Shown piece by piece: positions 5,709 through 45,179 of a stretch of 64,000 nt of DNA. Positions within the stretch are counted from its first letter, which is position 1. Each line of letters opens with the position of its first letter. Position numbers and translations under genes: made by a program. Origin of the DNA: a virus. The stretch is taken from positions 49,607-113,606 of the IMG/VR virus record IMGVR_UViG_3300018080_000123. One strand, written 5' to 3'. The notes under the pieces are model-generated. The model saw only the letters and a program-made list of their open reading frames with translations. It made no database searches and was not told where the DNA came from.

Positions 5709-7175
5709 TTATGAACGCCCAATGTTCTTCACGATACAATTCTTGCGAGGTGTATACATATGAAGAGCACCGTACATCAGCTGCATCCATCGATAGTTCG
5801 TACCAAGCAATGCAAGGTCGATCTTCATCATGGTAAGAAGCTGTTTGAACGCAAAGTTGTCCTCGTTTACCTGCATGAGGTAAGCTTTGGACAAACCAGG
5901 CATACTAGCGTTGAAGTCAATATCCAAATCACGGAAGTCACCGTCACCAGCGTGGAAGTTTGCAGGCTTCACGCGGCCGATAAACTCATGATTGCTCGAC
6001 CCAGCCTTGGGTGAGCGGAAGATATTGAAATACTGAACACCACTCGGATTCGAACCCGGGAGAATATCCAGCACGACTTTGTCGCCAGCGGCCACGGTAA
6101 CTGCCTTAGCAGCGCTTGCCAACGTTTCACCGTCGGAATACACTGCTGAACACTTATACTCGTAAGCGCCAACGTCAACAGCCGCAAACTGAGAACTACC
6201 AGAAGCCGGGCTGTTGTCGCCTGAGTTCGCATCCTGAAGGGTAGGGGCCGATTCAGCTGAAACGGCCGCAGCCAACGGAATACGACGAGGACGCTGGAAC
6301 ACGCCAGACTTAAGGTTGAAAGTACCAGAACCGGAAACGAACTGCTTCACAACGTAACCAGCTTTTCCTTCCATACCGAGCGTATTGATGCGCTCCTTGG
6401 CATAGAAAGCACGACTGAAGTCACTGTGGGCTTTCGTATCCATATACATATCCGTGCACATACCGAAATTGTTGGCCTGAACGAGGGCTGCCTCTTCGAG
6501 GATTTCCTCATCCAAAACCTCTCCACTCTGGAGATCATTTCGTTTGTCGAGGATGATGGTATCTGCGCCACTCAGCACATTGTAACCATCAAAGGCCTGA
6601 GCTTTAAACTCAGCCTGGCTCTCTTTGTCGCCAATCTGCTTATCAATACCGTCGAATTCGAGGCCATTGATTGAACTGTCGGCTGAAAAGAGGGCTCGCT
6701 CAAGCTGGGCCAGAATCCAAAGAGCACCATTCTTGATCTCTCTCTGAACGATCGGACCATGAGCTTGCCTAACCAGCATAACGTCGTGGTTAATCTGTTT
6801 CTGAACGCCCATGTACTTGATCTGCACCACGTTTCGGTCATAACCGGAATCCGCAGTTGCTGGAGCCGAGGCCATTGTGAAAAATGGAGGAATCTGGGCG
6901 CCATAACTGTTGTTCGTATTCGCTTGTTCAACCGTGTTGTATGCAGGAGTCTTCGGAATATCATTCCAAAGAAGCAGGTGCTTTTGTTCGTGGGTCACCA
7001 CTCGGAGGGTCTTATCCAAAGATTCGACCTGGAGAGCGGGAGCACCTGTAAAATCACCCGGAAGAGTATCCGAATAATTTTGGCTTGCAAAGCTGAGGGC
7101 TTTGCTGATTTCTTCAAGAAGCTGGGGAGCATCAGCTCCAAAACCAGTCAATGAAGAAGGATTGCTATTTTGCAT
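5709..7175 (-). CDS. Major capsid protein (HK97-like) with Ig-like insertion
   Basis: 488 residues. Size, position after the protease and scaffold genes, and the alternation of helical and extended segments with a C-terminal block ending in an Arg- and Lys-rich strand fit an HK97-fold major capsid protein. Residues about 300-415 break the pattern: YEYKCSAVYSDGE and QYFNIFRSPK resemble a fibronectin- or Ig-like beta sandwich, probably displayed on the capsid surface. Residues 18-55 (QLL, KAL, TLPGD, ESL) are shared with the N-terminus of the gene ending at 7828 and may be a processing or targeting segment. GGGAG precedes ATG. Confidence 0.85.
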   Translation of the reverse strand: MQNSNPSSLTGFGADAPQLLEEISKALSFASQNYSDTLPGDFTGAPALQVESLDKTLRVVTHEQKHLLLWNDIPKTPAYNTVEQANTNNSYGAQIPPFFTMASAPATADSGYDRNVVQIKYMGVQKQINHDVMLVRQAHGPIVQREIKNGALWILAQLERALFSADSSINGLEFDGIDKQIGDKESQAEFKAQAFDGYNVLSGADTIILDKRNDLQSGEVLDEEILEEAALVQANNFGMCTDMYMDTKAHSDFSRAFYAKERINTLGMEGKAGYVVKQFVSGSGTFNLKSGVFQRPRRIPLAAAVSAESAPTLQDANSGDNSPASGSSQFAAVDVGAYEYKCSAVYSDGETLASAAKAVTVAAGDKVVLDILPGSNPSGVQYFNIFRSPKAGSSNHEFIGRVKPANFHAGDGDFRDLDIDFNASMPGLSKAYLMQVNEDNFAFKQLLTMMKIDLALLGTNYRWMQLMYGALHMYTPRKNCIVKNIGRS

Positions 7176-9895: not shown

Positions 9896-11851
9896 CTATT
9901 TCTTTCTGGCTTTTTCAATTTCCGCCTTTTTTAAGCTATGCTTAGCGTCCCAACGCCTAAGAAATTCCTTCTCACTGATGTTATACTTTGTTGGGTTCTT
10001 TTTCTTTGCCTCTTGAAACATCTTAAGAGCAACGCCACGATTACTAGCTATTCTCCCAGGCCCGCGATCGGCAAATGCCTGTCTTTGGATAGCTCTTGCT
10101 GACGTCCCTGGACCGGGCTTACGGCCGCTTCCAGGGCCGCCCTTTTCAAAAAGCTTGGCTCGCTGTTTCTTTTTCTCCTGTTCTTTCTTCCAGCTTTCTC
10201 CGGCTCTATATTCAGAAATCTTTTGTTTAGATTCTATTGCTCTATCAACCTTCTTTCCTTGATCTCGCGCTTGATTAAAATGACTGGTAGCTTTAACATT
10301 TTTTCCTTCTGCGACTGCACTGTGGAAATCGGCTAGATGCTCGTGATATTTTGCTTTCTCTTTAGCAATCCCGCTACCAGAAACAGGAGCTCCTCCCTCA
10401 GTGCGACTTGGCTTAGATCTCTTCTCAGCTGCTTCTGCTTCCTTTCTGTGAGCGGCAGCAGCGTCTTTATGATCCTCTTTCGACCAATCATGATGATAGC
10501 CTACTGTATACCCGCTGTGACCTTTACCGTGTGAGGAATAAATAGGTTTGCCCGACTTCGTTCTTCCTATTACTTTTCCGCCTCTGGAGCCTTCTCCTGC
10601 TGCTTTATCGAGAGCTTCCGAAATCGCTTCAACGATTACGCTTTTAATGAAATGCTTCCTATCTTCTTTACGCGTAACAATTTTGGGCTTGAAATCTTCG
10701 CCAGGCTGGGCTTGATGATATTCAACGCGAGAAACATGTTCTTGATATGGAATGTGTAAGCTATTAACTGCTTCTTTAAAACGATTTAAGTGCCCGGGAG
10801 TATGAAATGAGTCTCCATGCTCACTAATTATCTTTCCATGCTCATCTAAAAGTTTTTGAATTTTCTTGTACGTCTCGTTAGCATGGCTTTCGACAGCATC
10901 TCTACCTGGAGCATTATGTTCGCCCGCTCCTCGCTTTTTTCTTGGAGCCTTATCTTTTGCTCCCATGCGACGGGCCTTTTCGAGGACACTTAAAAGGGTC
11001 ATTAAATTACTTTTTTTGACTCTTACTGCGCCCGGTGAAGGGGCGGAGGAGGCGACATCCCCTATCACCGGTTGACTAGCCACTGAAGGACTAGCCAGGG
11101 AAGAATCTTCATCTGTATATCCTAAAAGCTCGCCATCCTCCGACTTAGCAAGGGTTGGATTATCGTCGTAAGTAGAAAGCTCTACTGCTTCACTGTCCTT
11201 TTTCTTTTTCTTCTTTTCGCCATCCTGAATTTTATCTGCCTGACTTGCGCCTTCGGCCTGAATCTTTTCTACCTCACCCTCTCCCACACTTTCAAGAATA
11301 CAGGCCTTATCAATTTCTTCAATAGTATCTGAGCACTCATTAACTTCAAACCTCTCAACAGATAAAGATTTGGCAATCTCTGCATAAGTGCTTGTATTGA
11401 CTGGATCAAGTGTTAAGGCGACTTTCTCCACTCTCGCCCTTGCAATAACGCTCTTATCAATATCGTCTCGTTTAACAATCTTTCCCTCAATTGACATTTG
11501 CACTCTGTTCTTATCTGCTTTCTTCAACGAGCGCATAATGTTATAGAAGGCCTGAGCGCGGGGTTGGTGCTTAAAAAGATAGCCCTCAACATACAACCCG
11601 TTCATTGTGTTTTGGGCATAATCGATCTTACCGAGAACATTTTCTGGGCCCTTTTGATGGTCGTTATTAAAAAGTCCTTTTCCGTTTTTCAACGGACCAA
11701 TATCGAGCCCCGACTGCTGAACCACTTCACCTTGTAAATCCTTATCACCTGTGGAAGCAATTCCTTTAATGCGCCATTCGTCTTCGTTCTCGCCTTTGGC
11801 GAGCTCGACGGGCACAAAAAATTTGAAGGTGTCTTGGTCGCTTTTCCCCAT
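9896..11851 (-). CDS. Prohead protease with long C-terminal extension
   Basis: Residues about 10-165 match the HK97-type (S78) prohead protease: RIKGIASTGDKD opens the fold, H65 in FNNDHQ and S120 in VQMSIEG are the likely catalytic His and Ser, and VALTLDPVN closes it. The remaining 480 residues are low complexity: poly-Lys and acidic linkers, a Leu/Lys helix at 277-298, a GEGSRGGKVIGRTKSGKPIY motif (419-438), an Ala/His/Lys-rich region, and GGPGSGRKPGPG (571-582). A protease fused to a scaffold-like tail would be incorporated in the prohead and trimmed. GGAG precedes ATG. Confidence 0.8.
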   Translation of the reverse strand: MGKSDQDTFKFFVPVELAKGENEDEWRIKGIASTGDKDLQGEVVQQSGLDIGPLKNGKGLFNNDHQKGPENVLGKIDYAQNTMNGLYVEGYLFKHQPRAQAFYNIMRSLKKADKNRVQMSIEGKIVKRDDIDKSVIARARVEKVALTLDPVNTSTYAEIAKSLSVERFEVNECSDTIEEIDKACILESVGEGEVEKIQAEGASQADKIQDGEKKKKKKDSEAVELSTYDDNPTLAKSEDGELLGYTDEDSSLASPSVASQPVIGDVASSAPSPGAVRVKKSNLMTLLSVLEKARRMGAKDKAPRKKRGAGEHNAPGRDAVESHANETYKKIQKLLDEHGKIISEHGDSFHTPGHLNRFKEAVNSLHIPYQEHVSRVEYHQAQPGEDFKPKIVTRKEDRKHFIKSVIVEAISEALDKAAGEGSRGGKVIGRTKSGKPIYSSHGKGHSGYTVGYHHDWSKEDHKDAAAAHRKEAEAAEKRSKPSRTEGGAPVSGSGIAKEKAKYHEHLADFHSAVAEGKNVKATSHFNQARDQGKKVDRAIESKQKISEYRAGESWKKEQEKKKQRAKLFEKGGPGSGRKPGPGTSARAIQRQAFADRGPGRIASNRGVALKMFQEAKKKNPTKYNISEKEFLRRWDAKHSLKKAEIEKARKK

Positions 11852-13437: not shown

Positions 13438-13633
13438 CGTCTTTCTCCTTATCATCAAAAGACTCTTGATACGAAATATGAGCAACATGAACGCCTTCAC
13501 TATAGAACGTTTTAACGCTTCCTATCACAGCTCCTTTTATCTCAAGAATTTCTACAATTGCCCGCTCCAGCCTATCTTCAAATCCAATATCGTGCTCATC
13601 TCTTACAACTTTAATTCTAAAAACGCGTGTCAT
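13421..13633 (-). CDS. Hypothetical protein, 70 aa
   Basis: Short alpha/beta protein ending in a highly acidic tail. ATGA overlap with the metallopeptidase upstream and a 17-base overlap downstream place it in a tightly coupled operon. GGAGAGTGGAAAA lies before ATG. Function unknown. Confidence 0.75.
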   Translation of the reverse strand: MTRVFRIKVVRDEHDIGFEDRLERAIVEILEIKGAVIGSVKTFYSEGVHVAHISYQESFDDKEKDDDKQV

Positions 13634-14301
13634 TTTTCCACTCTCCTCTTATCGATCTTCTCTAAAATCTTACTTTTATCCTCGCAATATTTGTCCCAGT
13701 GTTTGTCACATAGACCTATCTTTCCAAGCTCCGGTACCATTACCCAACATTCCAGCTGCATCTTACAATACTTAACACTACACCTCAGATCTTTATCTTC
13801 ATAATCTTGAAAAAAGCCTTTTTGAGCAGTGCCAGCAAATTCTGCTTCAATGTTTTGCCTATACAATTCTGCCGCTCCCTCCAGCGCATATCCTCTTTCA
13901 TATTTGTACTTTCCCTCGTATGCTCTCTCCATCAACTGTTCCCCAACCTTGTCAACATATCTCTCCGCTCTTAATCCAATTTGTTTTGCTACATCATATG
14001 TCAAAGATCTGTTATGATACCGAGCAAACTTTCTATCTAACTTACACTGCCAGTGTCCAAGCTCATGGAACAGGTGATTTAAAAATCGCTCTACATTCGT
14101 AAAACGACCCTTAGAGTCTCTCATGCTAATTTTGATTTCTTTTGTCTCCAGATTGATCATAGCACCGCCGCATGTCGTCCAATCAAAGATCAATCCCAGC
14201 CCGCTTCTCAAAGCGATATCGATTCCTTTAGCTACATCTGGATGTTTCAAAAATCTATTCACAATCCACCTTTGTGAATCCGCCCGTAAAACTAATCGCA
14301 T
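13630..14301 (-). CDS. HExxH metallopeptidase-like protein
   Basis: 223 residues. H79-E80-L-G-H83 in FHELGHWQ is a classic zincin motif. Glu residues about 60 residues later (ALEGAAELY) could be the third zinc ligand, as in gluzincins. The C-terminal 55 residues hold CSVKYC and CDKHW, a probable structural zinc finger. There is no signal peptide, so the protease would act in the cytoplasm or in virions. It overlaps the PilZ-like gene upstream by 47 bases. Confidence 0.6.
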   Translation of the reverse strand: MRLVLRADSQRWIVNRFLKHPDVAKGIDIALRSGLGLIFDWTTCGGAMINLETKEIKISMRDSKGRFTNVERFLNHLFHELGHWQCKLDRKFARYHNRSLTYDVAKQIGLRAERYVDKVGEQLMERAYEGKYKYERGYALEGAAELYRQNIEAEFAGTAQKGFFQDYEDKDLRCSVKYCKMQLECWVMVPELGKIGLCDKHWDKYCEDKSKILEKIDKRRVEK

Positions 14302-14617
14302 ATCCGAGGCGGCGATCTCTTTCTTTCCTTTTCCAGTTAACTCTCCTCACCTCTCCATATACTCTAAACGTGCTAGGTCCATACCAATTAGGATGCTTCA
14401 GTTTGACAAAAAGAACAACCTCCGCTCGAGGCCTAATCTTAATCTGATCCTCTTCTTTCACAATGATAAAGCAACCGCCAACGTTAAAATCATATACCGA
14501 CCCCTTAGCAACTATCGTTCTAGTTTCCATATCCATCATTGCTGCATTACTGCCAAGGAAGGTGAGAAGTCTGGGTTTCTTTCTTTTCTCTTCTTTATTT
14601 TCCATCCTCTGTTCCAC
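14255..14617 (-). CDS. PilZ-like c-di-GMP-binding protein
   Basis: 120 residues, starting at GTG (14617) with AAAGG six bases upstream; the ATG four codons later has no properly spaced site. R12-x3-R16 (RKKPR) and D43-x-N45-x2-G48 (DFNVGG) correspond to the two c-di-GMP-binding motifs of PilZ, RxxxR and [DN]xSxxG, with Asn in place of Ser. The following strands and the closing GYAISFTGG also fit the PilZ beta barrel. Family assignment is by pattern only. A diguanylate cyclase gene lies 1.2 kb upstream in the same direction. Confidence 0.55.
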   Translation of the reverse strand: MEQRMENKEEKRKKPRLLTFLGSNAAMMDMETRTIVAKGSVYDFNVGGCFIIVKEEDQIKIRPRAEVVLFVKLKHPNWYGPSTFRVYGEVRRVNWKRKERDRRLGYAISFTGGFTKVDCE

Positions 14618-14637
14618 TTTAAACCTTTACCTCTCTA

Positions 14638-14982
14638 TTATACATCATCATCATATCTTTGTCTGGTTATCCAACTAGCTACTTTTGAGATTATCTTTTC
14701 CATGGCGCCCGATTCGTGACAAACCAACTCTAAGTAATAATCATGGTGATATTCTTTCAAGTCACTAATGATCATAAAAAGACTAAAATAAGGATCAGGC
14801 TCTTCTGCTTCTAACTCATAATAGTACAAAATATCAAGAGCATCAATGATCGGAAGAGACATCAGATCGGCGATATAAGACTGTCTGTCTTTTTGCAAGA
14901 TCTCTTGAACCTCTCCAATCATCCGCTCAAGTTTCCTCTCTTTATAAGTCCTGAGATCAGTTACTGGTTTTTTCGGATCCAT
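14638..14982 (-). CDS. Hypothetical helical protein, 114 aa
   Basis: Largely helical, with acidic clusters and many Tyr and Leu residues. The start is uncertain: ATG at 14982 overlaps the upstream gene by 26 bases, and one six codons earlier is also possible; neither has a strong ribosome binding site. It lies between the cyclase and the PilZ-like gene in the same transcript. No family recognised. Confidence 0.65.
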   Translation of the reverse strand: MDPKKPVTDLRTYKERKLERMIGEVQEILQKDRQSYIADLMSLPIIDALDILYYYELEAEEPDPYFSLFMIISDLKEYHHDYYLELVCHESGAMEKIISKVASWITRQRYDDDV

Positions 14983-15652
14983 GCCTGTAATTCCATTCAC
15001 GCTTAACCGCAGCCAAAAACTCTTTCACCGTTTGCCAGCGGGTCATTTCTCTGCCGGATGTTTTCACAAAATAAACGGGATAATGAATATAAATCTGATA
15101 TAGATTATCAAAATAAGCATAAATTTTGTAGGGACCTTCATAAAACCAAGTATTATACCACTTCCACTCGGTTTTTCCTGGTGTTAGAATTCCACAATAA
15201 GCAAGGTAATCCAAAACTCTTTCTTCTCGAACTTTTTGCATCTCCTCTCTCACTTCCTCATACGGCCTATCACCAAACAATTCAGGAGTAGCTGTGCTCC
15301 AAACCGGTTTTCGATTTTTCATCTTCTCTTTGTGCTTTTTAGACATTTCTTTTTCATCCGCAACTTCAAAAGGAAAAACTCTTAAATCGTGCTCATAATA
15401 GATCTCGATGTCTGAGCCAACGAGCTCAGCAATTTTTCCTAACCAATTACGATCTTTATCCAGATCGACATCTCCATACCAAACGACCTCGCCATCGACT
15501 ACTACATTTGAATTATAAACTGCCATTGCCGGCCCTCGACTTTTCGATGCGCTCACAAGACGCCCCGGACGACCGAGAAGAATACTCAAAATTGCTCCAG
15601 GGTCTTTATCTGAACACAGAGCTTGAATCTTTTTTTTAATTTTTGTTCCCAT
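14957..15652 (-). CDS. Hypothetical protein, 231 aa
   Basis: Residues about 40-95 (SRGPAMAVYNSNVVVDGEVV region) look like a compact beta-rich domain; the C-terminal half is Tyr- and Trp-rich. No catalytic motif, membrane segment or cysteine pair is visible. GGAGAGAAAAA precedes ATG. It lies in the operon headed by the diguanylate cyclase. Confidence 0.75.
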   Translation of the reverse strand: MGTKIKKKIQALCSDKDPGAILSILLGRPGRLVSASKSRGPAMAVYNSNVVVDGEVVWYGDVDLDKDRNWLGKIAELVGSDIEIYYEHDLRVFPFEVADEKEMSKKHKEKMKNRKPVWSTATPELFGDRPYEEVREEMQKVREERVLDYLAYCGILTPGKTEWKWYNTWFYEGPYKIYAYFDNLYQIYIHYPVYFVKTSGREMTRWQTVKEFLAAVKREWNYRHGSEKTSN

Positions 15653-15845
15653 TTTTTCTCTCCTCTATTTCGTTAAGCCGACATAACCAAGTAAACAGCT
15701 TAGCAATTCGACATTCATAAAGAGCTATCCGCTCTAAATTTCCTGGTCTAGCTCTTTCAAGCGGATCCCAGAAAAGCTTATTTATTTTTTCTTGAAGCTG
15801 GTCTCGTTTTCTTATTACCATTGCTTTCATTGGATGAATGTACAT
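15636..15845 (-). CDS. Hypothetical protein, 69 aa
   Basis: Helical Arg/Leu-rich protein. Its N-terminus overlaps the end of the cyclase gene by 68 bases; internal Met codons at 15830 and 15821 are equally plausible starts because no strong ribosome binding site distinguishes them. Function unknown. Confidence 0.55.
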   Translation of the reverse strand: MYIHPMKAMVIRKRDQLQEKINKLFWDPLERARPGNLERIALYECRIAKLFTWLCRLNEIEERKNGNKN

Positions 15846-16473
15846 GTCTAATCACCCCATGGCCATAGCCTTCATGGCTAAAATCCATAATTGTAGTAAA
15901 TACTAATGAATCTTTTTTTTCTTTAGCGATATACATGCCCCGATCAGCCGCTGTAATTAGCTCTTCTGCTTTGTCTCCTTTACTATATGATACAACCCCC
16001 ATACTGGCCGTAACCTTAATTGAATCATACTTAAACCTCATTTTCCTGTGGAGACGTTCGTAAAAATCAGCTGCTTTGTTAGGAGATTTGTTTAAGCTAA
16101 TCACAACAAATTCTTCTCCTCCCCAGCGAAATGCCTTATCATAGGATCGAGTTTGCTGACGTAAAGTTTCTCCTACTTTTTTAAGAATTTTATCTCCTAC
16201 TGCATGCCCATGAGTGTCGTTGATCTGTTTAAAGTTGTCCAAATCAATAAAACCAAGAGATAAAACTCCACCAATCCGATCGCATTGGTTGGTCAACTCT
16301 TCAAAATACCTATAGAAAGACTTGCGATGATGCAAACCTGTAAGCTCATCGCAAAAACTAATGCCAAATTTTTCTAGAAAATCAATGAGTTTTGTAGCGA
16401 GAATGAGCGAACAATCGTTTTTGTGCTCATCGATAAATAGAGTCAGTTCGCCTGTGAAATTGTCCTTTTTCAT
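15778..16473 (-). CDS. Diguanylate cyclase (GGDEF domain)
   Basis: Synthesises cyclic di-GMP from two GTP. The GGDEF domain covers about residues 41-190. It has DELTGLHHRKSF at the start, FIDLDNFKQINDTHGHAVGD carrying the first metal-binding Asp and substrate contacts (76-94), RxxD at 109-112, exactly five residues before GGEEF (118-122), and AADRGMYIAKEK at the end. Catalytic signature and product-inhibition I-site are both intact. The 40-residue N-terminus is helical with no recognised sensor, and there is no membrane segment. It has its own promoter (16487-16515) and GGAG site. Phage-encoded cyclases are unusual; the PilZ-like gene downstream strengthens the signalling reading. Confidence 0.9.
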   Translation of the reverse strand: MKKDNFTGELTLFIDEHKNDCSLILATKLIDFLEKFGISFCDELTGLHHRKSFYRYFEELTNQCDRIGGVLSLGFIDLDNFKQINDTHGHAVGDKILKKVGETLRQQTRSYDKAFRWGGEEFVVISLNKSPNKAADFYERLHRKMRFKYDSIKVTASMGVVSYSKGDKAEELITAADRGMYIAKEKKDSLVFTTIMDFSHEGYGHGVIRHVHSSNESNGNKKTRPASRKNK

Positions 16474-16486
16474 AGCTCCTACTTAT

Positions 16487-16515
16487 ATTATAGTAGACCT
16501 CTATCAAAAAGGCAA
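16487..16515 (-). promoter_or_regulatory. Promoter TTGCCT-N17-TATAAT for the cyclase operon
   Basis: TTGCCT (16510-16515) and TATAAT (16487-16492) on the minus strand are separated by 17 bases, 13 bases before the cyclase start codon. The leader is therefore very short but still includes the TAGGAGCT ribosome binding site. Confidence 0.75.
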
Positions 16516-17029: not shown

Positions 17030-17210
17030 CCGGGTCCTCTAATCTCACAACAGGTTTCAACTCATGAAGGCCCTTCTCGCTAAACAACGTTACGAGATAA
17101 ATATCGTCGTATTTGACAACCGCTTCTTCAGCTTCTTCTTTAGTTGTAAACAATAAATAATGCGGATCTTTCTTAAAAATCACACAATAATGAAATTTTT
17201 CTTGCTTCAT
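17010..17210 (-). CDS. Hypothetical protein, 66 aa
   Basis: Compact alpha/beta pattern: strand (HYCVIFK), short helix (TKEEAEEAVVKY), strands, acidic C-terminus. ATGA overlap with the serine protease gene upstream. Function unknown. Confidence 0.75.
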   Translation of the reverse strand: MKQEKFHYCVIFKKDPHYLLFTTKEEAEEAVVKYDDIYLVTLFSEKGLHELKPVVRLEDPDDDSSV

Positions 17211-18037
17211 TTGTTTTCTTCCAAAAATTTAACAATCTCCTTGTGGACAATCATCCACCCAATACTCGTAGGAGATTGATAGTTTCCAAAAAGACCGGCA
17301 AAAACCAAACCGGACAGCTCTCCCTTATCATTAAAGACTCCCGACCCGCTATTGCCTGGATAAATGGGAGCCGAAATTAGTCGCGCTTCCGAACCAAGAA
17401 CTTCAGCATAGCTTCCGACCCTTCCTTCGGCGACAGAGCCAAAAATTCCAAGAGGATTTCCGACAACAAAGATCTGATCTCCAAACTTAACTGGCTCTTT
17501 AGCAATCTTAACAGGGGTAAGTTTTTTTCCCTGCGAAACCACTTTTAACAAACACAAATCTGCTAATGACGATTTTCTATGAACTTTTGCATATAGATAG
17601 CTTGTATGTTCGGGGCTCTTAAGAGCCAAACGAAAGAACGTGCCAGGGGCTCTTTTATTAGCCGCCATATCGCAGACATGATTATTTGTTAACACTAGAT
17701 CGGGACTAATTGCAACCCCCGTACCAAAACCAACATTTGTCATCTCTACTCTCACAAACCCTGCCGATGGTTTATCAAGATATCCTTTTGTCGTACTTTC
17801 GGGCCCTTTAGTAGGAAACTTAATAGTATTCCTTTGAGGAATCATATTTCTGCCAACAGGATGTTGTAATGTTATTCCTTTTACAGTATGATTAACAGGA
17901 GTAGAGAGGGTCGAACGATCAATAAATTCGTCCAATTTAACAATTGTAGCGACATTTAATAGAAACATCGCCACCCCCGCAGCCAAATAAAAAACCACCA
18001 GTCCGATATTAAGAATTCGCGCAATTTTACTCAACAT
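17207..18037 (-). CDS. Membrane-anchored trypsin-like (Deg-type) serine protease
   Basis: Start at 18037 is chosen for AAGGAGATACAA upstream. A membrane segment spans residues about 8-31. The chymotrypsin-fold domain has H120 in LVLTNNHVC, D160 in SSLADLCLL and S230 in YPGNSGSG, so the catalytic triad is complete. No PDZ domain follows, unlike DegP or DegS. The topology suggests a periplasm-facing protease with a cytoplasmic N-terminus. It overlaps the ClpP-like gene by 11 bases. A role in envelope remodelling, superinfection control or inactivation of host surface proteins is possible but not shown. Confidence 0.8.
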   Translation of the reverse strand: MLSKIARILNIGLVVFYLAAGVAMFLLNVATIVKLDEFIDRSTLSTPVNHTVKGITLQHPVGRNMIPQRNTIKFPTKGPESTTKGYLDKPSAGFVRVEMTNVGFGTGVAISPDLVLTNNHVCDMAANKRAPGTFFRLALKSPEHTSYLYAKVHRKSSLADLCLLKVVSQGKKLTPVKIAKEPVKFGDQIFVVGNPLGIFGSVAEGRVGSYAEVLGSEARLISAPIYPGNSGSGVFNDKGELSGLVFAGLFGNYQSPTSIGWMIVHKEIVKFLEENK

Positions 18038-18896
18038 TTGTATCTCCTTCTTGATTTTCTTTTTTCTCATTACTTTCTTCCCCAGCAATCTGACTCAATA
18101 CTTCTTCAGTGTTATCAAACTCTTTTTGTAAAGGCTCATACTCTTCTTTTTTAATCTCAACTGTGATCTCTCCTCCTGCAGGAATGCTAATCCTGTCACA
18201 TAGAGCCTTGTATAGCTTTTTCAGCTCGCTTGGTTTGGGAAGATTATCAAAGGTCCTTTTTCTCGGTCCTTTTCGGTAATTCCCTCTTTTTCGATATTCA
18301 ACAATCTCATCTATTAGCCCTAACTCGAGCGCTTCCTCTGCCGAAATAAAAATATCTTTTCCGGTACTAGTCAACCTATCATAAAATTTCTTATCGGGAT
18401 ATGAATTATCGGCATAAACTTGATTCAATTTTGACTGAATCCTTTGCTCTTCCTCTTGATATATTTTTTGATCCGCTAGCGTTCTGCAACCTGGGTCATT
18501 AGCTCCCTCATGTAACAGGACCCTTGTAAGCTTAGACAAATATCTTTCATCGCAACAGCACATAATCCATGTAGCAGAGCTTCCTACGTGGCCTTTCCCA
18601 TAAAATACAAACTTACAGCGAGTTTCTTGAATAGTGTCATGAAGAGCCATCATTGACTCTGCGCATCCGCCATAAGAATTCATATAAATAGTGATTGGTT
18701 TGCTACTCATCTCCTCCATGAGATGAATTCCCATAATAGCTACTTTAACTGAATCCTGATCAAAAGCGTTATAGCTGACTTCTTCGTCGTCAGGCTCTTT
18801 ATCCGTTGGTTTACCAAAATAGATTTTTCTATGAATAACATCCACACCCCATTTCATTAGATTGTCAAGCCAGTCAGCGTCTTTTCTTGTAGACAT
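18027..18896 (-). CDS. ClpP-like serine protease
   Basis: 289 residues; residues about 40-210 follow the ClpP/crotonase fold: YMNSYGG (71-77), GHVGSSATW with likely nucleophile S106, LLHEG with H129, and ELGLIDEIVEY holding the Asp. The C-terminal 80 residues are an added acidic tail. Some phages use ClpP-like enzymes as prohead proteases, but a separate S78-type prohead protease is present here, so this one may cut host or regulatory proteins. It could also need a host Clp ATPase; no hydrophobic docking motif can be judged by eye. Confidence 0.8.
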   Translation of the reverse strand: MSTRKDADWLDNLMKWGVDVIHRKIYFGKPTDKEPDDEEVSYNAFDQDSVKVAIMGIHLMEEMSSKPITIYMNSYGGCAESMMALHDTIQETRCKFVFYGKGHVGSSATWIMCCCDERYLSKLTRVLLHEGANDPGCRTLADQKIYQEEEQRIQSKLNQVYADNSYPDKKFYDRLTSTGKDIFISAEEALELGLIDEIVEYRKRGNYRKGPRKRTFDNLPKPSELKKLYKALCDRISIPAGGEITVEIKKEEYEPLQKEFDNTEEVLSQIAGEESNEKKENQEGDTNVE

Positions 18897-18904
18897 AACG
18901 CCTC

Positions 18905-20221
18905 CTATTTCTTGTGTTCTAGCTCTAAATCATAAATTGGAATGATTTTATCTAACTCCTTGTTATTATCTACTTCTTTACTAAACTGAACTCGCCTAAT
19001 ATCTCCGCATGGATGTTTTTTTGTAGACTCCACGATTGTCTGAGATGAAATAGCGTAGTTGATACTTAGTGAGCTTGCAAACGGATCTTTTCCGGATAAT
19101 GTCGAATTAACAACAACATCGATTCCATTTTGTGTTTTAGCTTTTAGCTCCTGGTGAACGTGCCCTGCAAGAACGCCAGCAATAGGAGGATTCCCCTTTT
19201 TAATTTCTCCAGTATTAAATGACTCTATTTGATGTGTAAGGGCTTTAAAATTAATTGACTTCCCGGGAGCAGAAATAGCTGAAAATACCGTATCTCCGTG
19301 AACACCTATCAGACGACCACCAATCGTATCAATCATCACATACTGTGTTTTAGGAATAACGAATTTAACCCGACCAGCAAAAATCAACGATAGGGCATAA
19401 TAAACGGGATTAATTACGCTATCATATTTTTGTTGGTTAACTCTATTTCCGCCCTCTCTACGAAATGGCCAGTCTTCATGATTGCCAGGAATACCATAGA
19501 ATACAATCTCATCAAAAAAATTCAAAAGATACGAAATCATATGAAACAAAACATGTAGGGCCCCGTTCATTTGATGAACAATAAGATCAGTATCAATTCC
19601 CGTCTTGTTATGAATCTTACCATGATTAATATCGCCTAAAGAGGCTAAGTGAAGTTTTTTGGTGGCTGCCCTATGGGCAAGTTTATAGTTAGCAATTTCC
19701 TGGGCAAAGAATGCGCATCTCCTGCAGCCCTCTGTCCATCCAAAACTATTTGAATTCCCGACTTCATTACTATCGACCTTGAGACCAAGATGCCAGTCTG
19801 AAAACGGAGCAACCAACTCTCTTTTTTCTACAGTAGGGGCTTGAATCTTTTTAAGAAATCCTTTTATTTCTTTCTTATTAAGAACAACCGGACTTAACTT
19901 AAGATTTTTGATTGACTTGGCAAACTCTTCGGTCAAATAGGCCATTTCATAATCTTCAAGAATATTTTTTCTTTGAATTGAGCGTGCAAGACTCCTATAT
20001 TTATTTGCAACAATTGTTTCTGATGTTTTAAGAGTCTCTCCCAAATCAACCGCTTCTTCAAAAGCGACGTTCCATCCTCCGAAGAATTTTCTGATTAAAT
20101 GGTCTGATAAACCGGCTGAAACAAACTCTGTCTTCGTTGGCCGAGATCCTTTCAACTTATGTAAAGCAACTATCTTCTCTAGAATTTCTTTTTTGAGCTC
20201 TTTATTGCTTTTTTTCTTCAT
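18905..20221 (-). CDS. Metallophosphoesterase with N-terminal HNH-associated repeat
   Basis: Start at the second Met (20221) because GGAG is six bases upstream of it. Residues about 10-60 (GSRPTKTEFVSAGL, FFGGWNVAFEEA) resemble the small DNA-binding repeat linked to homing endonucleases. From about residue 135 there is a calcineurin-like phosphoesterase: SDWHLGL, LGDINHG, GNHEDW, GVHGDT, AGHVHQ supply all metal-binding motifs. DNA end processing or nuclease activity is suggested by the fusion; the substrate is unknown. It ends 8 bases from the ClpP-like gene. Confidence 0.75.
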   Translation of the reverse strand: MKKKSNKELKKEILEKIVALHKLKGSRPTKTEFVSAGLSDHLIRKFFGGWNVAFEEAVDLGETLKTSETIVANKYRSLARSIQRKNILEDYEMAYLTEEFAKSIKNLKLSPVVLNKKEIKGFLKKIQAPTVEKRELVAPFSDWHLGLKVDSNEVGNSNSFGWTEGCRRCAFFAQEIANYKLAHRAATKKLHLASLGDINHGKIHNKTGIDTDLIVHQMNGALHVLFHMISYLLNFFDEIVFYGIPGNHEDWPFRREGGNRVNQQKYDSVINPVYYALSLIFAGRVKFVIPKTQYVMIDTIGGRLIGVHGDTVFSAISAPGKSINFKALTHQIESFNTGEIKKGNPPIAGVLAGHVHQELKAKTQNGIDVVVNSTLSGKDPFASSLSINYAISSQTIVESTKKHPCGDIRRVQFSKEVDNNKELDKIIPIYDLELEHKK

Positions 20222-20507
20222 CCTCATCTCCGCAATAATTAAAAATGATATTATCTGGCCTCATAGCCAGATAATCCTTGCCTTCTATATTAATTGTGTA
20301 AATTTTAAATTCATCGAGCTCAGCAAAGCAGACTCTTTTTCCCATAAGCTTAGAAATAGCTTCTTTAGGTTGTATGAATCCCGACACCTTTACAATCGTC
20401 CCTTCGTTGTTGTTTTGCTCTTTAGGCATAATAAGCCCTTTTTGCTCAGGGGCTTTATCTTTCTCAATAATAAGCCATCCATTCCAGACATCAATATTAT
20501 TTAGCAT
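20202..20507 (-). CDS. GroES-like co-chaperonin
   Basis: 101 residues, the usual Cpn10 size. The pattern WLIIEKDKAPEQKGLIMPKE, GTIVKVSG, GKRVCFAE and YLAMRPDNIIF follows the GroES order: first strand, mobile loop, strand with Gly turn, beta core, closing strand. GLIM in the mobile loop could replace the IVL tripeptide that docks on GroEL. A phage GroEL is encoded at 49975-51564. Overlaps the chaperone gene upstream by 11 bases. Sequence identity to GroES is low, so this is a structural guess supported by context. Confidence 0.6.
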   Translation of the reverse strand: MLNNIDVWNGWLIIEKDKAPEQKGLIMPKEQNNNEGTIVKVSGFIQPKEAISKLMGKRVCFAELDEFKIYTINIEGKDYLAMRPDNIIFNYCGDEDEEKKQ

Positions 20508-21321
20508 CTTCCTTCTCCTGCTTTACGCGAATATTAAGAACTTCAACATCAAAATCAACTTCTTTTCCCGCCAACTGTTCGTCTGCGTAATCTTCAGGAA
20601 AAACAACATGAATTACTCCAGGCTTATTCTTTTCTGCACCAATAAGGGCCTGTTCAAACCCTTCAAAAACCTGCCCGGCTCCGACCTGAATCAGCTCATT
20701 ATCGTTAGATCCTCCCTCAAACTCAACGCCGTCAAGTTTGCCCACATATTTTAGATTAACAATGTCCCCCTCTTCAACGGGACGATCGACTTCAACCAAA
20801 TTAAGCTTTTCATTGACCTGCTTTTCAATTTCTCTCATCTTATCTTTTTGAAGATCGTTGATTTTATCAACCAAAGCCTTCTTTTCTTTTTTCTCGCTTT
20901 CTTCAAGATCTTCAACAGACATACACTTTTCTGGATTAAGACTAAGCAAGATTTCTTTCACCCAAGCCATCTCTCGGACCAGATATTCTTGAGTCCCTGC
21001 AATTTGCAAAGTAAGATCCGCAACAGCTCTGTTCAGCTTAGTTGTGTTTTCCGATACATAGCTGGTAGTATTAGCAATAATCTTCCTAAAATTCATATCC
21101 ATTTGAAGAACATCATTACCTAAAGCCTGAACGATAGCTTGAAGTCGTGCAACGGGGATAACAACAGCTTTATCTCTATATCCTTTAGCAAGAGGCTCGT
21201 TTTTTGCTCCAGCTTTTTGAAACCCGCTCTGCTTCACATTCTGTTCGGCTTCATCGGCGGCCTTATCGTGACTCTCTTTCATTTGCTCAGCTTCCTTTTT
21301 GAGCGCTTCTTCATTTGTCAT
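20497..21321 (-). CDS. FKBP/trigger-factor-like peptidyl-prolyl isomerase
   Basis: 274 residues. Residues about 182-265 form an FKBP domain: EEGDIVNLKYVGKLDGVEFEGG, then AGQVFEGFEQALIGAEKN, then the closing strand VDFDVEVLNI, closely resembling the isomerase domain of trigger factor. The N-terminal 180 residues are mostly helical with a coiled coil (about 135-175) and do not look like the ribosome-binding domain. It overlaps the GroES-like gene, suggesting joint expression of folding factors, probably for capsid or fibre proteins. Confidence 0.8.
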   Translation of the reverse strand: MTNEEALKKEAEQMKESHDKAADEAEQNVKQSGFQKAGAKNEPLAKGYRDKAVVIPVARLQAIVQALGNDVLQMDMNFRKIIANTTSYVSENTTKLNRAVADLTLQIAGTQEYLVREMAWVKEILLSLNPEKCMSVEDLEESEKKEKKALVDKINDLQKDKMREIEKQVNEKLNLVEVDRPVEEGDIVNLKYVGKLDGVEFEGGSNDNELIQVGAGQVFEGFEQALIGAEKNKPGVIHVVFPEDYADEQLAGKEVDFDVEVLNIRVKQEKEDAK

Positions 21322-23159: not shown

Positions 23160-23377
23160 TAATAATTTCTCAACTCATCAATAATATCTTGAATTGATCT
23201 TTCAATCACGTCTTTTGCATATTGAGCGGACCACTTAAGTTCAATATCTCTCAACACCGGATCGTCGAACCTACTCGGATGAGCGTTTTCTGCTTTTTCA
23301 GAAAGAGCTTTAACAAGCTCCTCTTCAACAGACTCAGGAGTCTCTCCGGGTTCCAAAATGATTTTAATCTTAGCCAT
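23159..23377 (-). CDS. Hypothetical head-cluster protein, 72 aa
   Basis: Small acidic alpha/beta protein between portal and gpF-like genes, sharing one-base overlaps with both. Pattern: N-terminal strand (IKIILEPG), then helices. No family recognised. Confidence 0.75.
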   Translation of the reverse strand: MAKIKIILEPGETPESVEEELVKALSEKAENAHPSRFDDPVLRDIELKWSAQYAKDVIERSIQDIIDELRNY

Positions 23378-25101
23378 TATTTTTTATACCACTCTACTTT
23401 GATCAATTTAGGACTTTTACTTTTCTTGAGAGATCTTTGCATCTCTCCTTCAGGCTCTCCGGATTCTTCTTCATTCAGAGCTCCGAACCCCTGATCTTCT
23501 TCAGGGCCAAACTCTCCACCCTCTGGGATTGCTTCTTGTTTCTTCTCTGCTTCGAATTCGCCAAATTGAGAAATCCACTGAACGTATTGAGGGTCTAAAA
23601 TCAAATGCCCGCCTCTCTCTGGCCCCAAAGGCTCCATTCCATCCTCAGCTCGAATTTCATCAATAGTTTTTGAATACCTGACTTCTTTATTTTCTCTTTC
23701 GACTTCTTGAACTCTAGATTCTGCATCTAACCCAACAAACTCTAAACAAAATTCATTATTGACCTTATCAATAATTTCCTCATTAATCAGATCCTCAAAA
23801 AACCGAAGAAGCGGCCTCAGTCCTTTGTCTTTTGAATGCTTCATCCGGGTTTCGTTTTGAGACTGGAAAACTCCTCCAGGAGATCCGGCATCTTTAGCAA
23901 TATCGAACCCAATTTCCTCAGGGCTGATACAATAAATAGCACAAGCAATCTTAATAAGATAGTTCATCCAATTTGAATACTCGATATCTCTGTTAGATTG
24001 AGTTAGCGGAATCCACGAAATCTTATCAGAGCCTGCAAAAATCGGAGTTCTCCAACTATTAACATTCCCGCTCGTTTGGGCATCCCACTGCTGTCTTAAA
24101 GCTTTCAGTTTCCTCTGTGGAACGTCAGCTTGAAAATGAAGAATTCCTTTGGTAACATGCCCTTGAGTAAAGAAAAGCTTGTTATAGGTTTCTGCCTGTA
24201 GATGAGAAGTGATTGTTGATACCAATAGTTCTAGTTCTCCAACGGAGTACCCGTTTGCATAAATATCGTTAACGGGGTTCCCCATACGAAAAATAAGATC
24301 ATCCGCTGTAAATCCCCTGACTACTCTGTTATCAATAACTTGAGCATAAAGATTGTTGTTTTCCTGGGCCTCTTTTCTTTCTTCCTCGTTATCGGGTCTT
24401 GTAATGTTATTGTAAGATTGAGCCCCAGTAGCGGAGGCGGTAGAAGTGTCTTGCCCTTTGTTAGATGCAAATCTTATTGTTCCAGCGTCGACAGGTAAAA
24501 AATGATGAAGTTTATCTGCATTATCATGAATTTTTTCTATTGCGACCTGGTCATATGTGAGCCTGTCCCTAGCGGCTTTTCTCAAAAATACGTCAAGAGA
24601 TAAAAGCTCGGTCTGTGGGCGATCGTTCATATGTCCACAATTTGAAATAAACTCGGTTAGCTCATCAATAATTGCTTTATCTTGCTGTTCGAGTTCTTTG
24701 ATTTTATTTTCATCATCATCGAGACTTTGATCACGATCCCTCTTGCGCCTAATAATAAATCCTTCACTATATTTATTTTTCTGAGGTCGACTAAACAAGC
24801 AAAGCTGGTTGGTCCGAGTTTGAATAATTGAAGCTATGATAGTATCTCGATAGGACATTAACTTTAGAACATTGAAATCAATTCGAGTTGGTTTTTCTTT
24901 ATACCCAGCAGACTCATAGTAGGCATCATGAAGAGGAGCATAAAAAGATCGACGATAGAATCCGTCGTTGAAATCCATAAGCTCGTTATCTCGAGATTTC
25001 CGGACCATATCGGCTCTTGAATCAGAAATGTATTTTTCAAGACGAACGTCAGTTGCTTCTAGTATCTTTCCAATAAGTCCTTTTTTCTTCTCATCTGACA
25101 T
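23377..25101 (-). CDS. Portal protein
   Basis: 574 residues, the usual size. Portal character is shown by the YRDTIIASIIQTRTNQ entry helix, NVNSWRTPIFAGSDKI with the following IPLTQSNRDIEYSNWMN segment (wing and stem region), and FDIAKDAGSPGGVFQSQNE. The C-terminal acidic and basic tail ends in PKLIKVEWYKK. The gene sits between terminase and minor head genes. It forms the dodecameric DNA entry channel of the capsid. A GGAGATTAGAT site precedes ATG. Confidence 0.9.
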   Translation of the reverse strand: MSDEKKKGLIGKILEATDVRLEKYISDSRADMVRKSRDNELMDFNDGFYRRSFYAPLHDAYYESAGYKEKPTRIDFNVLKLMSYRDTIIASIIQTRTNQLCLFSRPQKNKYSEGFIIRRKRDRDQSLDDDENKIKELEQQDKAIIDELTEFISNCGHMNDRPQTELLSLDVFLRKAARDRLTYDQVAIEKIHDNADKLHHFLPVDAGTIRFASNKGQDTSTASATGAQSYNNITRPDNEEERKEAQENNNLYAQVIDNRVVRGFTADDLIFRMGNPVNDIYANGYSVGELELLVSTITSHLQAETYNKLFFTQGHVTKGILHFQADVPQRKLKALRQQWDAQTSGNVNSWRTPIFAGSDKISWIPLTQSNRDIEYSNWMNYLIKIACAIYCISPEEIGFDIAKDAGSPGGVFQSQNETRMKHSKDKGLRPLLRFFEDLINEEIIDKVNNEFCLEFVGLDAESRVQEVERENKEVRYSKTIDEIRAEDGMEPLGPERGGHLILDPQYVQWISQFGEFEAEKKQEAIPEGGEFGPEEDQGFGALNEEESGEPEGEMQRSLKKSKSPKLIKVEWYKK

Positions 25102-41890: not shown

Positions 41891-42384
41891 TATCGGTTGT
41901 CTACCTTTTTACAATTGATATTTCTCTGTATTAGTCGATGCTGTCTAAAATTTTCCCACTCGGGACTCCCATTGCAAGAGCTCGAGAAAGGATCAATGCT
42001 AATTCCGCCCCGAGGGAGAAACTCTCCCACCACTTCGATATATCTAGGGTTCATCAGCTTCTTCAAATCTTTCATAATGATATTTACGCAATCCTCATGA
42101 AAATCTCCCTGATTGCGAAACGAAAACAAATACAGCTTTAATGACTTTGATTCGACCATCAATTCATCCGGGACATAGCTGATATAAATCGTAGCAAAAT
42201 CCGGCTGCCCAGTTTTTGGACAAAGAGACGTAAACTCGGGACAATTAAAAGTTACCATATACTCGGTATCTAAATGCTTATTCCGAAACGTCTCTAGAAC
42301 TTCAGGATTATACTTATCAGAATATTTTACATTCTGATTCCCTAGTAAGTTCACACCCTCCAATTCTTTGTCATTCCTCGACAT
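41890..42384 (-). CDS. queF: NADPH-dependent 7-cyano-7-deazaguanine reductase QueF
   Basis: 164 residues, T-fold, unimodular type. C55 in [13 protein letters not shown] is the nucleophile that forms the thioimide with preQ0; D62 follows in the same motif. E79-SKSLK binds substrate and FHED (H96) is conserved. Reduces the nitrile of preQ0 to the aminomethyl of preQ1. Start at 42384 after CAGGAGAAAAGAA; overlaps the DpdA-like gene by 14 bases. Its presence predicts preQ1, not preQ0, as the base used. Confidence 0.93.
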
Positions 42385-43228
42385 TTCTTTTCTCCTGTGC
42401 AACGAGGTACTTAAATACCTCTATATTATACAAGATGCATTGCATTTGCCTAATCGTAAGCTTAACGTCAAGGTTATTGGCTAAAAGATCTTTTTTCTTC
42501 TTTCCCCTCAATCCAAAAAGATAGCTAATTTTCATGTCAAAATATCCATGAATGATAGGACAGCTTGTATCCACAGATACAATAAAGTCGTATCTATTTC
42601 CATCCCTATATTTGATAAACTCGATAGGATCGCTACATCCAAGAAGATGATGGTGTTTCTCTCTGTTAATAAGCCCTTTTTCAATAAGTCGATTGATTAG
42701 TTTATGCCGCGCTTCAACAAAGCGAAGAACTTCTTTGCCATATTTTGGAATAAGTTCATCATCATAAAACAAAACATCATATGGAATAGCAATAACGCTA
42801 ACACCGGGATTATTAACTAATGTAGAATAACAATCAAAGTATTCTTGTTCGGTTTTTCCCTGAGCAACTGCGATGATTTTATACTCTAATCTCTCTTCCT
42901 TCATTCGAGCAATAAAATTTTCAACGCTTGCAACTGTAGCAGGTCCATTATGTAAAACATCTGGAGGAACGATATGAGTAGGATTAATCATTCTTGCGTA
43001 CTTTAAAAGAAAATCAGCAGTAACAGACTCTCCCAACTCAAAAACACTATTATCAAGGAAAATTATTCGTCCTTTTTTTGCTCTGTCAATATAAAACTGC
43101 AAATACTCCGGATCCCGCTCGCACATATGAACTAAGCAATAATCAAAATCATTGAATGTCAAAGAAGGTCCAAAGAGCATTTTCGGGCACTCATGAGAAA
43201 CTAGCAACCTGTCATTTGTCTTTTTCAC
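42371..43228 (-). CDS. dpdA: DpdA-like DNA guanine transglycosylase
   Basis: 285 residues. Related to tRNA-guanine transglycosylase: D59 in [11 protein letters not shown] aligns with the DSGGFQ acid, D90 in VPPDVLHN with the second substrate Asp, and D220 in SVDTSCP with the nucleophile. [14 protein letters not shown] and HHLLGCSDP match the QGG and GxG loops. No tRNA-binding or C-terminal zinc domain is visible, so DNA rather than tRNA is the likely target, as in phage DpdA proteins. It would exchange guanine for a deazaguanine base in genomic DNA. It overlaps FolE2 by 17 bases. Confidence 0.8.
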
Positions 43229-44048
43229 GAAAATTCCTTTCTAATGTTGCAATAGCATTACACTGATGAATGCTCTCATCGTGGTCGGCTGTTACTTGGT
43301 AGTAGTCGATCTTATCCCCCATCTCATCTAAAACAACAGCAATCTTACGAACCATATCCTCGACAAATCCAGGATTATCATAGGCCCTCTCTGTGACATA
43401 TTTTTCGTCAGGCCTTTTGAGAGTATTCCAAATTGGACAGCTTCCAGCTTGTTCAATTATCTGAGCAAGATCTTCAATCCAAATAAAATTTTTCATATCT
43501 TTAAAGCGAATCTTAATGGTTCCGGTCGACCTTTGATTATGAGCCCCGTGCCCCGCTCCGTTTCCATTAGAACTCATTTCTTTGCTACAAGGACAAAGAG
43601 ACGTGTACATAACACTGACGCTCAAAAAAAGATCCTTTTCTCCGTTTTCTAATACGCCTTCGAAATGACAATCGTAGTAAAAATGAGACTCTTCTCCGCT
43701 AACTGGAGCTTTCTTTTTAACAAAATATGGAAAATCAATTCGAATCTTTGAATCAGTCTGCTGAAGCTGATCTCGACATGCGTCAACCATATCATTAACA
43801 AGATCGCTATCAAGCAACTTCTTCTCAAGCGCTCTTTCAATGACTTGAGAAAACCGACTCATATTGACCCCGCGACTTTCTGTACTAAGATCAACAGCAA
43901 GAGAAACAGTTCCCACAGTCGTCGTAACTCCCTCCCCTTTTGTTTTTACGCTAAACGGAATTTTATAATTACGAATTCCCACCCAGTTAATCTTTTTGTC
44001 ATATTTGTCTTTTGAATTTTGAATATCTGGTAAATTTTGACTATTCAT
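43212..44048 (-). CDS. folE2: GTP cyclohydrolase IB (FolE2)
   Basis: 278 residues. SLCPCSKEMSSNGNGAGHGAHNQRS carries the metal-binding Cys and His residues; EQAGSCPIWNTLKRPDEKYVTE follows as in MptA/FolE2. Converts GTP to dihydroneopterin triphosphate, the first step of the 7-deazaguanine pathway. The metal-flexible type IB enzyme would avoid reliance on host zinc-dependent FolE. It overlaps the phosphoribosyltransferase gene by eight bases. Confidence 0.93.
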   Translation of the reverse strand: MNSQNLPDIQNSKDKYDKKINWVGIRNYKIPFSVKTKGEGVTTTVGTVSLAVDLSTESRGVNMSRFSQVIERALEKKLLDSDLVNDMVDACRDQLQQTDSKIRIDFPYFVKKKAPVSGEESHFYYDCHFEGVLENGEKDLFLSVSVMYTSLCPCSKEMSSNGNGAGHGAHNQRSTGTIKIRFKDMKNFIWIEDLAQIIEQAGSCPIWNTLKRPDEKYVTERAYDNPGFVEDMVRKIAVVLDEMGDKIDYYQVTADHDESIHQCNAIATLERNFREKDK

Positions 44049-45178: not shown

Positions 45179-45179
45179 T

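What the first reader, a model, noticed from the sequence alone, without database searches (positions are those of the whole stretch)
14255..16473. Phage-encoded cyclic di-GMP module: intact diguanylate cyclase plus PilZ-like protein
The protein at 15778-16473 has the complete GGDEF signature GGEEF and an RxxD inhibitory site exactly five residues before it, so it should make c-di-GMP and be self-limited. 1.2 kb downstream in the same direction, 14255-14617 keeps RxxxR (R12, R16) and DxNxxG (D43-G48), the two PilZ binding motifs. The cyclase has its own TTGCCT/TATAAT promoter. Inference: the phage raises and reads c-di-GMP, perhaps to hold cells sessile, block flagellar or pilus changes, or shape lysis timing. 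I know of few phage genomes with both parts together.
Basis: partly seen in the sequence, partly recalled or inferred. Interest (0 to 1): 0.85.

Follow-up and report, generated by a model that had tools for sequence, protein, structure and literature searches.

The report
Phage diguanylate cyclase with PilZ-like partner
An uncultivated tailed phage carries, among its head genes, what looks like a working enzyme for the bacterial signal c-di-GMP plus a distant relative of the PilZ proteins that read that signal, and most of its relatives carry a different GGDEF cyclase domain in the same head-gene interval, sometimes fused to the head-maturation protease.

Summary
15778-16473(-) is a sensorless diguanylate cyclase (PF00990 E 1.6e-38) with a complete active site and I-site; one departure is G445-[K/R]446 -> K-D. 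14255-14617(-) is a real, conserved gene and a remote PilZ homologue (0 of ~4,650 shuffles match its score; best of 7,853 phage ORFs), but below Pfam's cutoff, with Asn for Ser in the second motif, so c-di-GMP binding is open. Both genes have TATAAT promoters of the class used by the portal and head-protease genes. The window lies in a 113.6-kb contractile-tail phage contig distantly related to Myxococcus phage Mx1. The pair is not unprecedented: Bacillus phage SP-15 carries an annotated cyclase and an annotated PilZ protein. New here: in this lineage a GGDEF domain in the head-gene interval is nearly universal (22 of about 26 records that cover it, Mx1 included), keeps most catalytic residues, lacks the I-site, and in several phages is the C-terminal domain of the prohead-protease polyprotein. 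The window's cyclase looks bacterial rather than like that family (98/99 split), though common ancestry is not rejected (AU p = 0.38). Best reading: a late-expressed c-di-GMP module; what it does to the host is inference.

The parts
15778..16473 (-). Diguanylate cyclase: GGDEF domain (residues ~40-187 of 231), no sensor domain, short N-terminal helix region, charged C-terminal tail; GGEEF, I-site RSYD, metal Asp, base-binding Asn/Asp and Lys442 kept; positions 445/446 are K-D instead of G-[K/R]
16487..16515 (-). Promoter of the cyclase gene: TTGCCT-17-TATAAT, 13 nt from the start codon; the same TTGCCT / TATAATATAAG pair recurs at 1051-1023
14255..14617 (-). PilZ-like protein (120 aa, GTG start; ATG at 14605 possible): RxxxR complete, D-x-N-x-x-G in place of D/NxSxxG
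   Evidence: E 0.05, below cutoff; C-terminus conserved in sibling L177; fold inconclusive
14637..14665 (-). Promoter-like CAGACA-17-TATAAT in front of the PilZ-like gene
15636..15845 (-). 69-aa ORF overlapping the end of the cyclase gene, no known family
14957..15652 (-). 231-aa ORF between cyclase and PilZ-like gene, no known family
14638..15000 (-). 120-aa ORF immediately before the PilZ-like gene, no known family
13630..14301 (-). Zincin-like protein with HELGH, overlapping the end of the PilZ-like gene; conserved in L177
   Evidence: (WLM/MPTase-PolyVal, weak)
9896..11851 (-). Head maturation (prohead) protease, phrog_1028; in relatives the homologous N-terminus is fused to a C-terminal GGDEF domain, here it is not
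18027..18896 (-). ClpP-type head protease, upstream boundary of the interval
23377..25101 (-). Portal protein, synteny anchor (28-29% identical to that of Mx1)
5709..7175 (-). Major capsid protein, synteny anchor (24% identical to that of Mx1)

Best explanation
A phage-borne c-di-GMP module expressed with the head genes. The 231-aa cyclase, which has no sensor domain, joins two GTP into c-di-GMP in the infected cell and stops itself through its I-site at moderate product level. The PilZ-like protein, made from the same gene block with its own promoter of the same class, is the phage's own output: it binds c-di-GMP directly, or works as a PilZ-type adaptor, and alters a host target, most likely motility, pili or surface polysaccharide during the last part of infection. 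Shown: intact catalytic and inhibitory residues, PilZ homology, shared promoter class, head-gene location. Inferred: cyclase activity, c-di-GMP binding, late timing, and the host effect.
For: All canonical catalytic positions match 80 bacterial DGCs (D327, D329, F331, K332, N335, D336, D344, R366, GGEEF, K442) and the I-site is complete. PilZ homology beats all shuffles and all other phage ORFs and the gene is conserved in a sibling phage. Promoter enrichment includes both genes and also portal and prohead protease. A GGDEF domain recurs in the same interval in 22 of about 26 relatives that cover it, so cyclase activity seems to be favoured there. SP-15 independently carries both parts.
Against: Residues 445/446 (K, D) depart from G-[K/R] of nearly all bacterial DGCs. 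No dimerisation domain is recognisable. PilZ motif 2 has Asn for Ser (30/32 Ser); Pfam score is below cutoff; the AF2 model is poor (pLDDT 47) with no significant fold match. No PilZ in any of 49 related records (the same Pfam search also misses the window's own remote copy, but the more sensitive HMM on the stretches held agrees). Three unrelated ORFs lie between the two genes. Host unknown; no expression data.
Confidence: 0.45

Rival explanations
1. The cyclase belongs functionally to the head: it fills the slot of the lineage's head-linked GGDEF protein, which in relatives is fused to or encoded next to the prohead protease and so is probably carried into the prohead and perhaps the virion and the next cell. 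The PilZ-like gene is then an unrelated passenger.
For: GGDEF in the portal-to-capsid interval in 22 of about 26 covering records including Mx1; C-terminal to the prohead protease N-terminus in several (homology to the window's protease hhalign prob 95.5, E 1.5e-8); AU test does not reject window plus phage family as one clade (p 0.377).
Against: The window's cyclase groups with bacterial DGCs, 98/99, has an I-site that the family lacks, is not fused, and lacks the family's C-terminal tail (503 of 1989 shuffles score as high). The head interval is about 16 of 113.6 kb, so a random insertion lands there about 14% of the time.
Confidence: 0.3
2. The GGDEF protein no longer makes c-di-GMP but binds GTP or c-di-GMP (I-site receptor) and acts as a sponge or regulator.
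For: K445-D446 replaces G-[K/R], near the phosphate-contacting Lys/Arg; no partner or dimerisation domain.
Against: Every other catalytic residue is kept; receptor-type GGDEFs usually lose GG[DE]EF (general knowledge); 446 varies in 8 of 80 bacterial DGCs.
Confidence: 0.12
3. The PilZ-like protein keeps the PilZ barrel but does not bind c-di-GMP; it works as a protein-binding adaptor, like type IV pilus PilZ proteins.
For: Ser->Asn in motif 2; solved non-binding PilZ proteins exist (PMC3131395) and appear among the weak fold matches (XC1028, PilB-PilZ).
Against: RxxxR and the D and G of motif 2 are kept, in register.
Confidence: 0.35
4. The cyclase serves defence conflict: it floods or mimics cyclic-nucleotide signals to upset host immunity.
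For: Proposed in general for GGDEF domains of phage polyvalent proteins (PMC5512222).
Against: No defence-linked gene was identified beside it; base-binding residues are those of c-di-GMP makers, not a known CBASS signal.
Confidence: 0.07

Closest known systems
Bacillus phage SP-15 cyclase (SP15_150) and PilZ protein (SP15_170)
   Same: One phage genome with a stand-alone GGDEF protein with GGEEF and a small PilZ protein, both annotated by the depositors
   Different: The two genes lie about 15 kb apart; the cyclase is in a glycosyltransferase cluster, not a head cluster; its PilZ passes Pfam's cutoff (31.3 bits) and shows no direct similarity to the window's
Myxococcus phage Mx1 'nucleotide cyclase' WNM70324
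   Same: GGDEF-family gene between prohead protease and major capsid genes of a homologous head module
   Different: Diverged family without I-site, GGDEF not GGEEF, no PilZ found; separated from the window's cyclase in the tree
Stand-alone bacterial diguanylate cyclases (PleD/WspR/DosC-type GGDEF domain)
   Same: Complete active site and I-site
   Different: No sensor domain; K-D at 445/446; encoded in a phage head module
GGDEF domains of phage polyvalent proteins (Iyer et al. 2017, PMC5512222)
   Same: Cyclase domain linked to phage structural or delivered proteins, as in this phage's relatives
   Different: The window's cyclase is not part of a multidomain protein
Mu-like virus with a diguanylate cyclase, Cariaco Basin (PMC7785012)
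   Same: Phage-carried cyclase with a predicted promoter
   Different: Different phage type; no PilZ mentioned in the passages read

Membership tests
Diguanylate cyclase (GGDEF, PF00990) | Domain score above curated cutoff | tested here: met
   132.5 bits against 23.8; TIGR00254 141.2 against 37.4
Diguanylate cyclase (GGDEF, PF00990) | GG[DE]EF, metal Asp, guanine-binding Asn and Asp, Lys442 | tested here: met
   All present; same residues as 80 bacterial DGCs
Diguanylate cyclase (GGDEF, PF00990) | Basic residue at 446 after Gly445 | tested here: inconclusive
   Window K-D; K or R at 446 in 72 of 80 bacterial DGCs; a Lys sits one position earlier
Diguanylate cyclase (GGDEF, PF00990) | I-site RxxD five residues before GG[DE]EF | tested here: met
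   RSYDKAFRWGGEEF
Diguanylate cyclase (GGDEF, PF00990) | Dimerisation and c-di-GMP synthesis | not testable with these tools
   Needs protein
PilZ domain (PF07238) | Score above Pfam cutoff | tested here: not met
   14.4 bits against 22.5
PilZ domain (PF07238) | Homology to PilZ proteins by a profile built here | tested here: met
   18.8 bits over residues 10-111, 0 of ~4,650 shuffles, best of 7,853 ORFs
PilZ domain (PF07238) | RxxxR | tested here: met
   R12, R16, aligned in register
PilZ domain (PF07238) | D/NxSxxG | tested here: not met
   D43-x-N45-x-x-G48: Ser replaced by Asn; Ser in 30/32 PilZ. It is therefore called PilZ-like, not filed as a canonical c-di-GMP-binding PilZ
PilZ domain (PF07238) | Six-stranded barrel fold | tested here: inconclusive
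   Single-sequence AF2 pLDDT 47; no significant Foldseek match, though PilZ structures recur among the weak ones
Head-linked GGDEF family of Mx1-like phages | Position between portal and major capsid genes, same strand | tested here: met
Head-linked GGDEF family of Mx1-like phages | Same clade | tested here: inconclusive
   Split 98/99 from the family, but AU test does not reject union (p 0.377)
Head-linked GGDEF family of Mx1-like phages | No I-site, D-x-M-x-P-G-x-G-N-K motif, HSLVPGHEG-type tail | tested here: not met
   Window has an I-site and DELTGLHHRK; tail no better than shuffles. Not filed as a member

The most novel reading that the evidence does not exclude
In Mx1-like contractile phages a nucleotide cyclase is a standing part of the head programme: a GGDEF domain attached to or encoded beside the prohead protease is built into the prohead and reaches the next host, so the phage sets c-di-GMP from the first moment of infection. 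The window phage has replaced this domain by a host-derived, feedback-limited cyclase and added its own PilZ reader.
Probability: 0.22. Interest if true: 0.85.

Novelty: new variant of a known kind. Interest (0 to 1): 0.6.

Why it matters
c-di-GMP sets whether bacteria swim, stick or make capsule, all of which decide whether phage progeny find new hosts. Phage cyclases have been reported one by one as curiosities. Here GGDEF domains are a lineage trait located with head genes and in some phages fused to the head protease, and one relative, Mx1, grows on the laboratory strain Myxococcus xanthus DK1050. That makes the question of why phages carry c-di-GMP enzymes directly testable. If the PilZ-like protein binds c-di-GMP, the window phage both writes and reads the signal.

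Tried and rejected
Shared C-terminal tail between the window's cyclase and the phage family looked convincing by eye but 503 of 1989 shuffles scored as high: rejected. Fusion of a family GGDEF to the window's own prohead protease: only one PF00990 match in the whole 113.6-kb record. EAL phosphodiesterase in the phage: none. HD-GYP was not searched. PilZ in relatives or Mx1: none by Pfam nor by the sensitive HMM on the stretches held. Single-sequence structure of the PilZ-like protein: too poor to use. PilZ relatives in the phage and plasmid collections: none or chance matches to protelomerases. Many INPHARED GGDEF matches lie in records that look bacterial, such as Escherichia phage vB_EcoS-683R6 (dgcM among host genes) and Microcystis phage MaAM05 (aspS, hemW, pgi): not counted as phage cyclases. 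Host assignment was not achieved.

Full report
WHAT THE WINDOW IS. The window is bases 49607-113606 of a 113,606-base linear virus record. It carries terminase, portal, a MuF-like head protein, two head proteases, scaffold, major capsid protein, and a contractile tail set in the rest of the record. A second IMG/VR contig (90.7 kb, sample 3300017991) is 99.97% identical. Its nearest named relative is Myxococcus phage Mx1: terminase 29%, portal 29%, capsid 24% identical. The host is unknown.

THE CYCLASE. ORF 15778-16473(-), 231 aa, is a GGDEF protein beyond doubt (Pfam 132.5 bits, E 1.6e-38; TIGR00254 141 bits). Aligned with 80 bacterial cyclases, it has the same residue as the bacterial majority or an accepted alternative at metal Asp327, Asp329, Phe331, Lys332, Asn335, Asp336, Asp344, Arg366, GGEEF and Lys442 (PleD numbering from memory), and a complete RxxD I-site. 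The one departure is Lys-Asp at 445/446, where bacteria have Gly then Lys or Arg. There is no sensor domain. Asp344 is the residue changed in cGAMP-making Hypr GGDEFs (general knowledge); here it is Asp, so c-di-GMP is the expected product. Activity itself is untested.

THE PILZ-LIKE PROTEIN. ORF 14255-14617(-) scores 14.4 bits against Pfam PilZ, below the 22.5 cutoff, and has no relative in PHROGs, NCBIfam, PDB sequences or INPHARED. I built a PilZ HMM from 32 domains of 16 bacterial genomes. The window protein scores 18.8 bits over residues 10-111; none of about 4,650 scored shuffles reaches this (max 11.4), and it is the best of 7,853 ORFs from the phage contigs, the next unrelated ORF scoring 8 bits. 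A sibling phage contig (L177, capsid 93% identical) begins inside the gene: GQVKRVNWKRRKKDRRLGYAIHFTSRFTKVECE against GEVRRVNWKRKERDRRLGYAISFTGGFTKVDCE, same stop. So it is a real, conserved PilZ homologue. But the second motif reads DxNxxG; the defining motif is D/NxSxxG (PMC3131395), with Ser in 30 of 32 bacterial PilZ. The AF2 model from one sequence is not usable (pLDDT 47); PilZ structures (MotI/DgrA, MrkH, XC1028, PilZ of PilB-PilZ) recur among non-significant fold matches.

EXPRESSION. TATAAT on the coding strand is found within 60 nt upstream of gene starts 17 times against 3.8 expected; no anagram exceeds 8. Both genes have such a site, as do the portal and prohead protease genes. The TTGCCT-17-TATAATATAAG of the cyclase recurs at 1051-1023. 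The short distance to the cyclase's start codon (13 nt) implies a very short leader. Late expression is an inference from the shared promoter class and location.

THE LINEAGE. Scans of IMG/VR with terminase and portal alignments gave about 55 related contigs. Pfam GGDEF matches 19 of 49 records, Mx1 included; an iterative HMM adds three. In those placed by synteny the domain lies on the same strand downstream of portal and, where the contig reaches it, upstream of the capsid gene. By my count of records that hold the interval it is present in 22 of about 26 (two pairs are near-duplicates), a degenerate remnant in one, and not found in three, one of which (G040) is covered for only about 12 kb. 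Metal Asp327 and Asp370 are kept in 18 of 18 domains, Asn335 in 16, Asp344 in 15, Glu371 in 15, Lys442 in 17; the I-site is gone. An AF2 model of the L053 protein (pLDDT 79.5) matches diguanylate cyclase structures with probability 1.00. In several phages the domain is at the C-terminus of an open frame of 1,200-1,650 residues. The N-terminus of these polyproteins is homologous to the window's own head-maturation protease (hhalign prob 95.5, E 1.5e-8; phrog_1028 for two members). In Mx1 protease and cyclase are separate genes. Packaging into the prohead is inferred from the fusion, not shown.

IS THE WINDOW'S CYCLASE PART OF THAT FAMILY? Not shown. A 56-row tree puts the phage family on one side and the window among bacterial cyclases (98/99). 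The bacterial rows were chosen by similarity to the window, and phage branches are long. An AU test does not reject window plus phage family (p 0.377). The apparent similarity of tails fails a shuffle test. Replacement of a head-linked domain by a host-derived cyclase, or chance insertion (about 14% by interval length), both remain possible.

PRECEDENT. Bacillus phage SP-15 has an annotated diguanylate cyclase (SP15_150) and an annotated PilZ protein (SP15_170), so both parts in one phage genome is not new. Phage G and Bordetella phage FP1 have GGDEF genes without a PilZ match. A Mu-like virus cyclase (PMC7785012), a sargassum viral cyclase (PMC11295528), a PilZ-domain protein in a Maribacter phage (PMC11590407) and GGDEF domains in polyvalent phage proteins (PMC5512222) have been reported. 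I found no paper on a GGDEF domain fused to a prohead protease or conserved in a phage head module; the library holds open-licence papers only.

VERDICT. The finding is real and its biochemical reading is plausible: cyclase activity likely (my estimate 0.8), PilZ fold likely (0.85), c-di-GMP binding by the PilZ-like protein about even. The biological role is open.

Noticed in passing
window 42371-46873 (-): Deazaguanine gene set: FolE2 (43212-44048), QueC (44459-45292), radical-SAM QueE-like (45180-45914), QueD/PTPS (46457-46873), next to an ORF at 42371-43228 that looks DpdA-like by eye but has no Pfam hit; suggests 7-deazaguanine modification of phage DNA.
   Followed up: partly
window 49975-51564 and 20202-20507 (-): Phage-encoded GroEL (Cpn60) and a GroES-like small protein 30 kb apart; an FKBP-like protein at 20497-21321.
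   Followed up: partly
window 18027-18896 and 9896-11851 (-): Two different head-maturation protease types in one head module: ClpP-type and phrog_1028-type, plus a trypsin-like protein with an N-terminal hydrophobic segment at 17207-18088.
   Followed up: partly
L003:2-2215; terminase genes of L022, L051, L053, L056, L057, L063-L066, L071: Terminase genes 800-1100 aa long with an extra segment; in L003 it starts CVTENTYVLSDG and ends LANNILTANS, looking like an intein.
   Followed up: no
L084:1264-2538 (+): A GGDEF domain followed in one open frame by a DUF3293 / S-adenosylmethionine lyase-type domain.
   Followed up: no
L046 / L095:5912-6448 (+): Degenerate head-interval GGDEF remnant (GNDF in place of GGDEF, metal Asp region missing), just upstream of an intact capsid gene.
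   Followed up: partly
window 14638-15000, 14957-15652, 15636-15845 (-): Three ORFs between cyclase and PilZ-like gene with no relative in Pfam or PHROGs (two of them also checked in NCBIfam); possible partners of the module.
   Followed up: partly
Phage collection records MW495066, ON470595, CAKLQ* (Acinetobacter phage MD-2021a): Records labelled phage that appear to be bacterial DNA (aspS, hemW, pgi, dgcM, zntB), which inflates counts of phage cyclases and PilZ proteins.
   Followed up: partly
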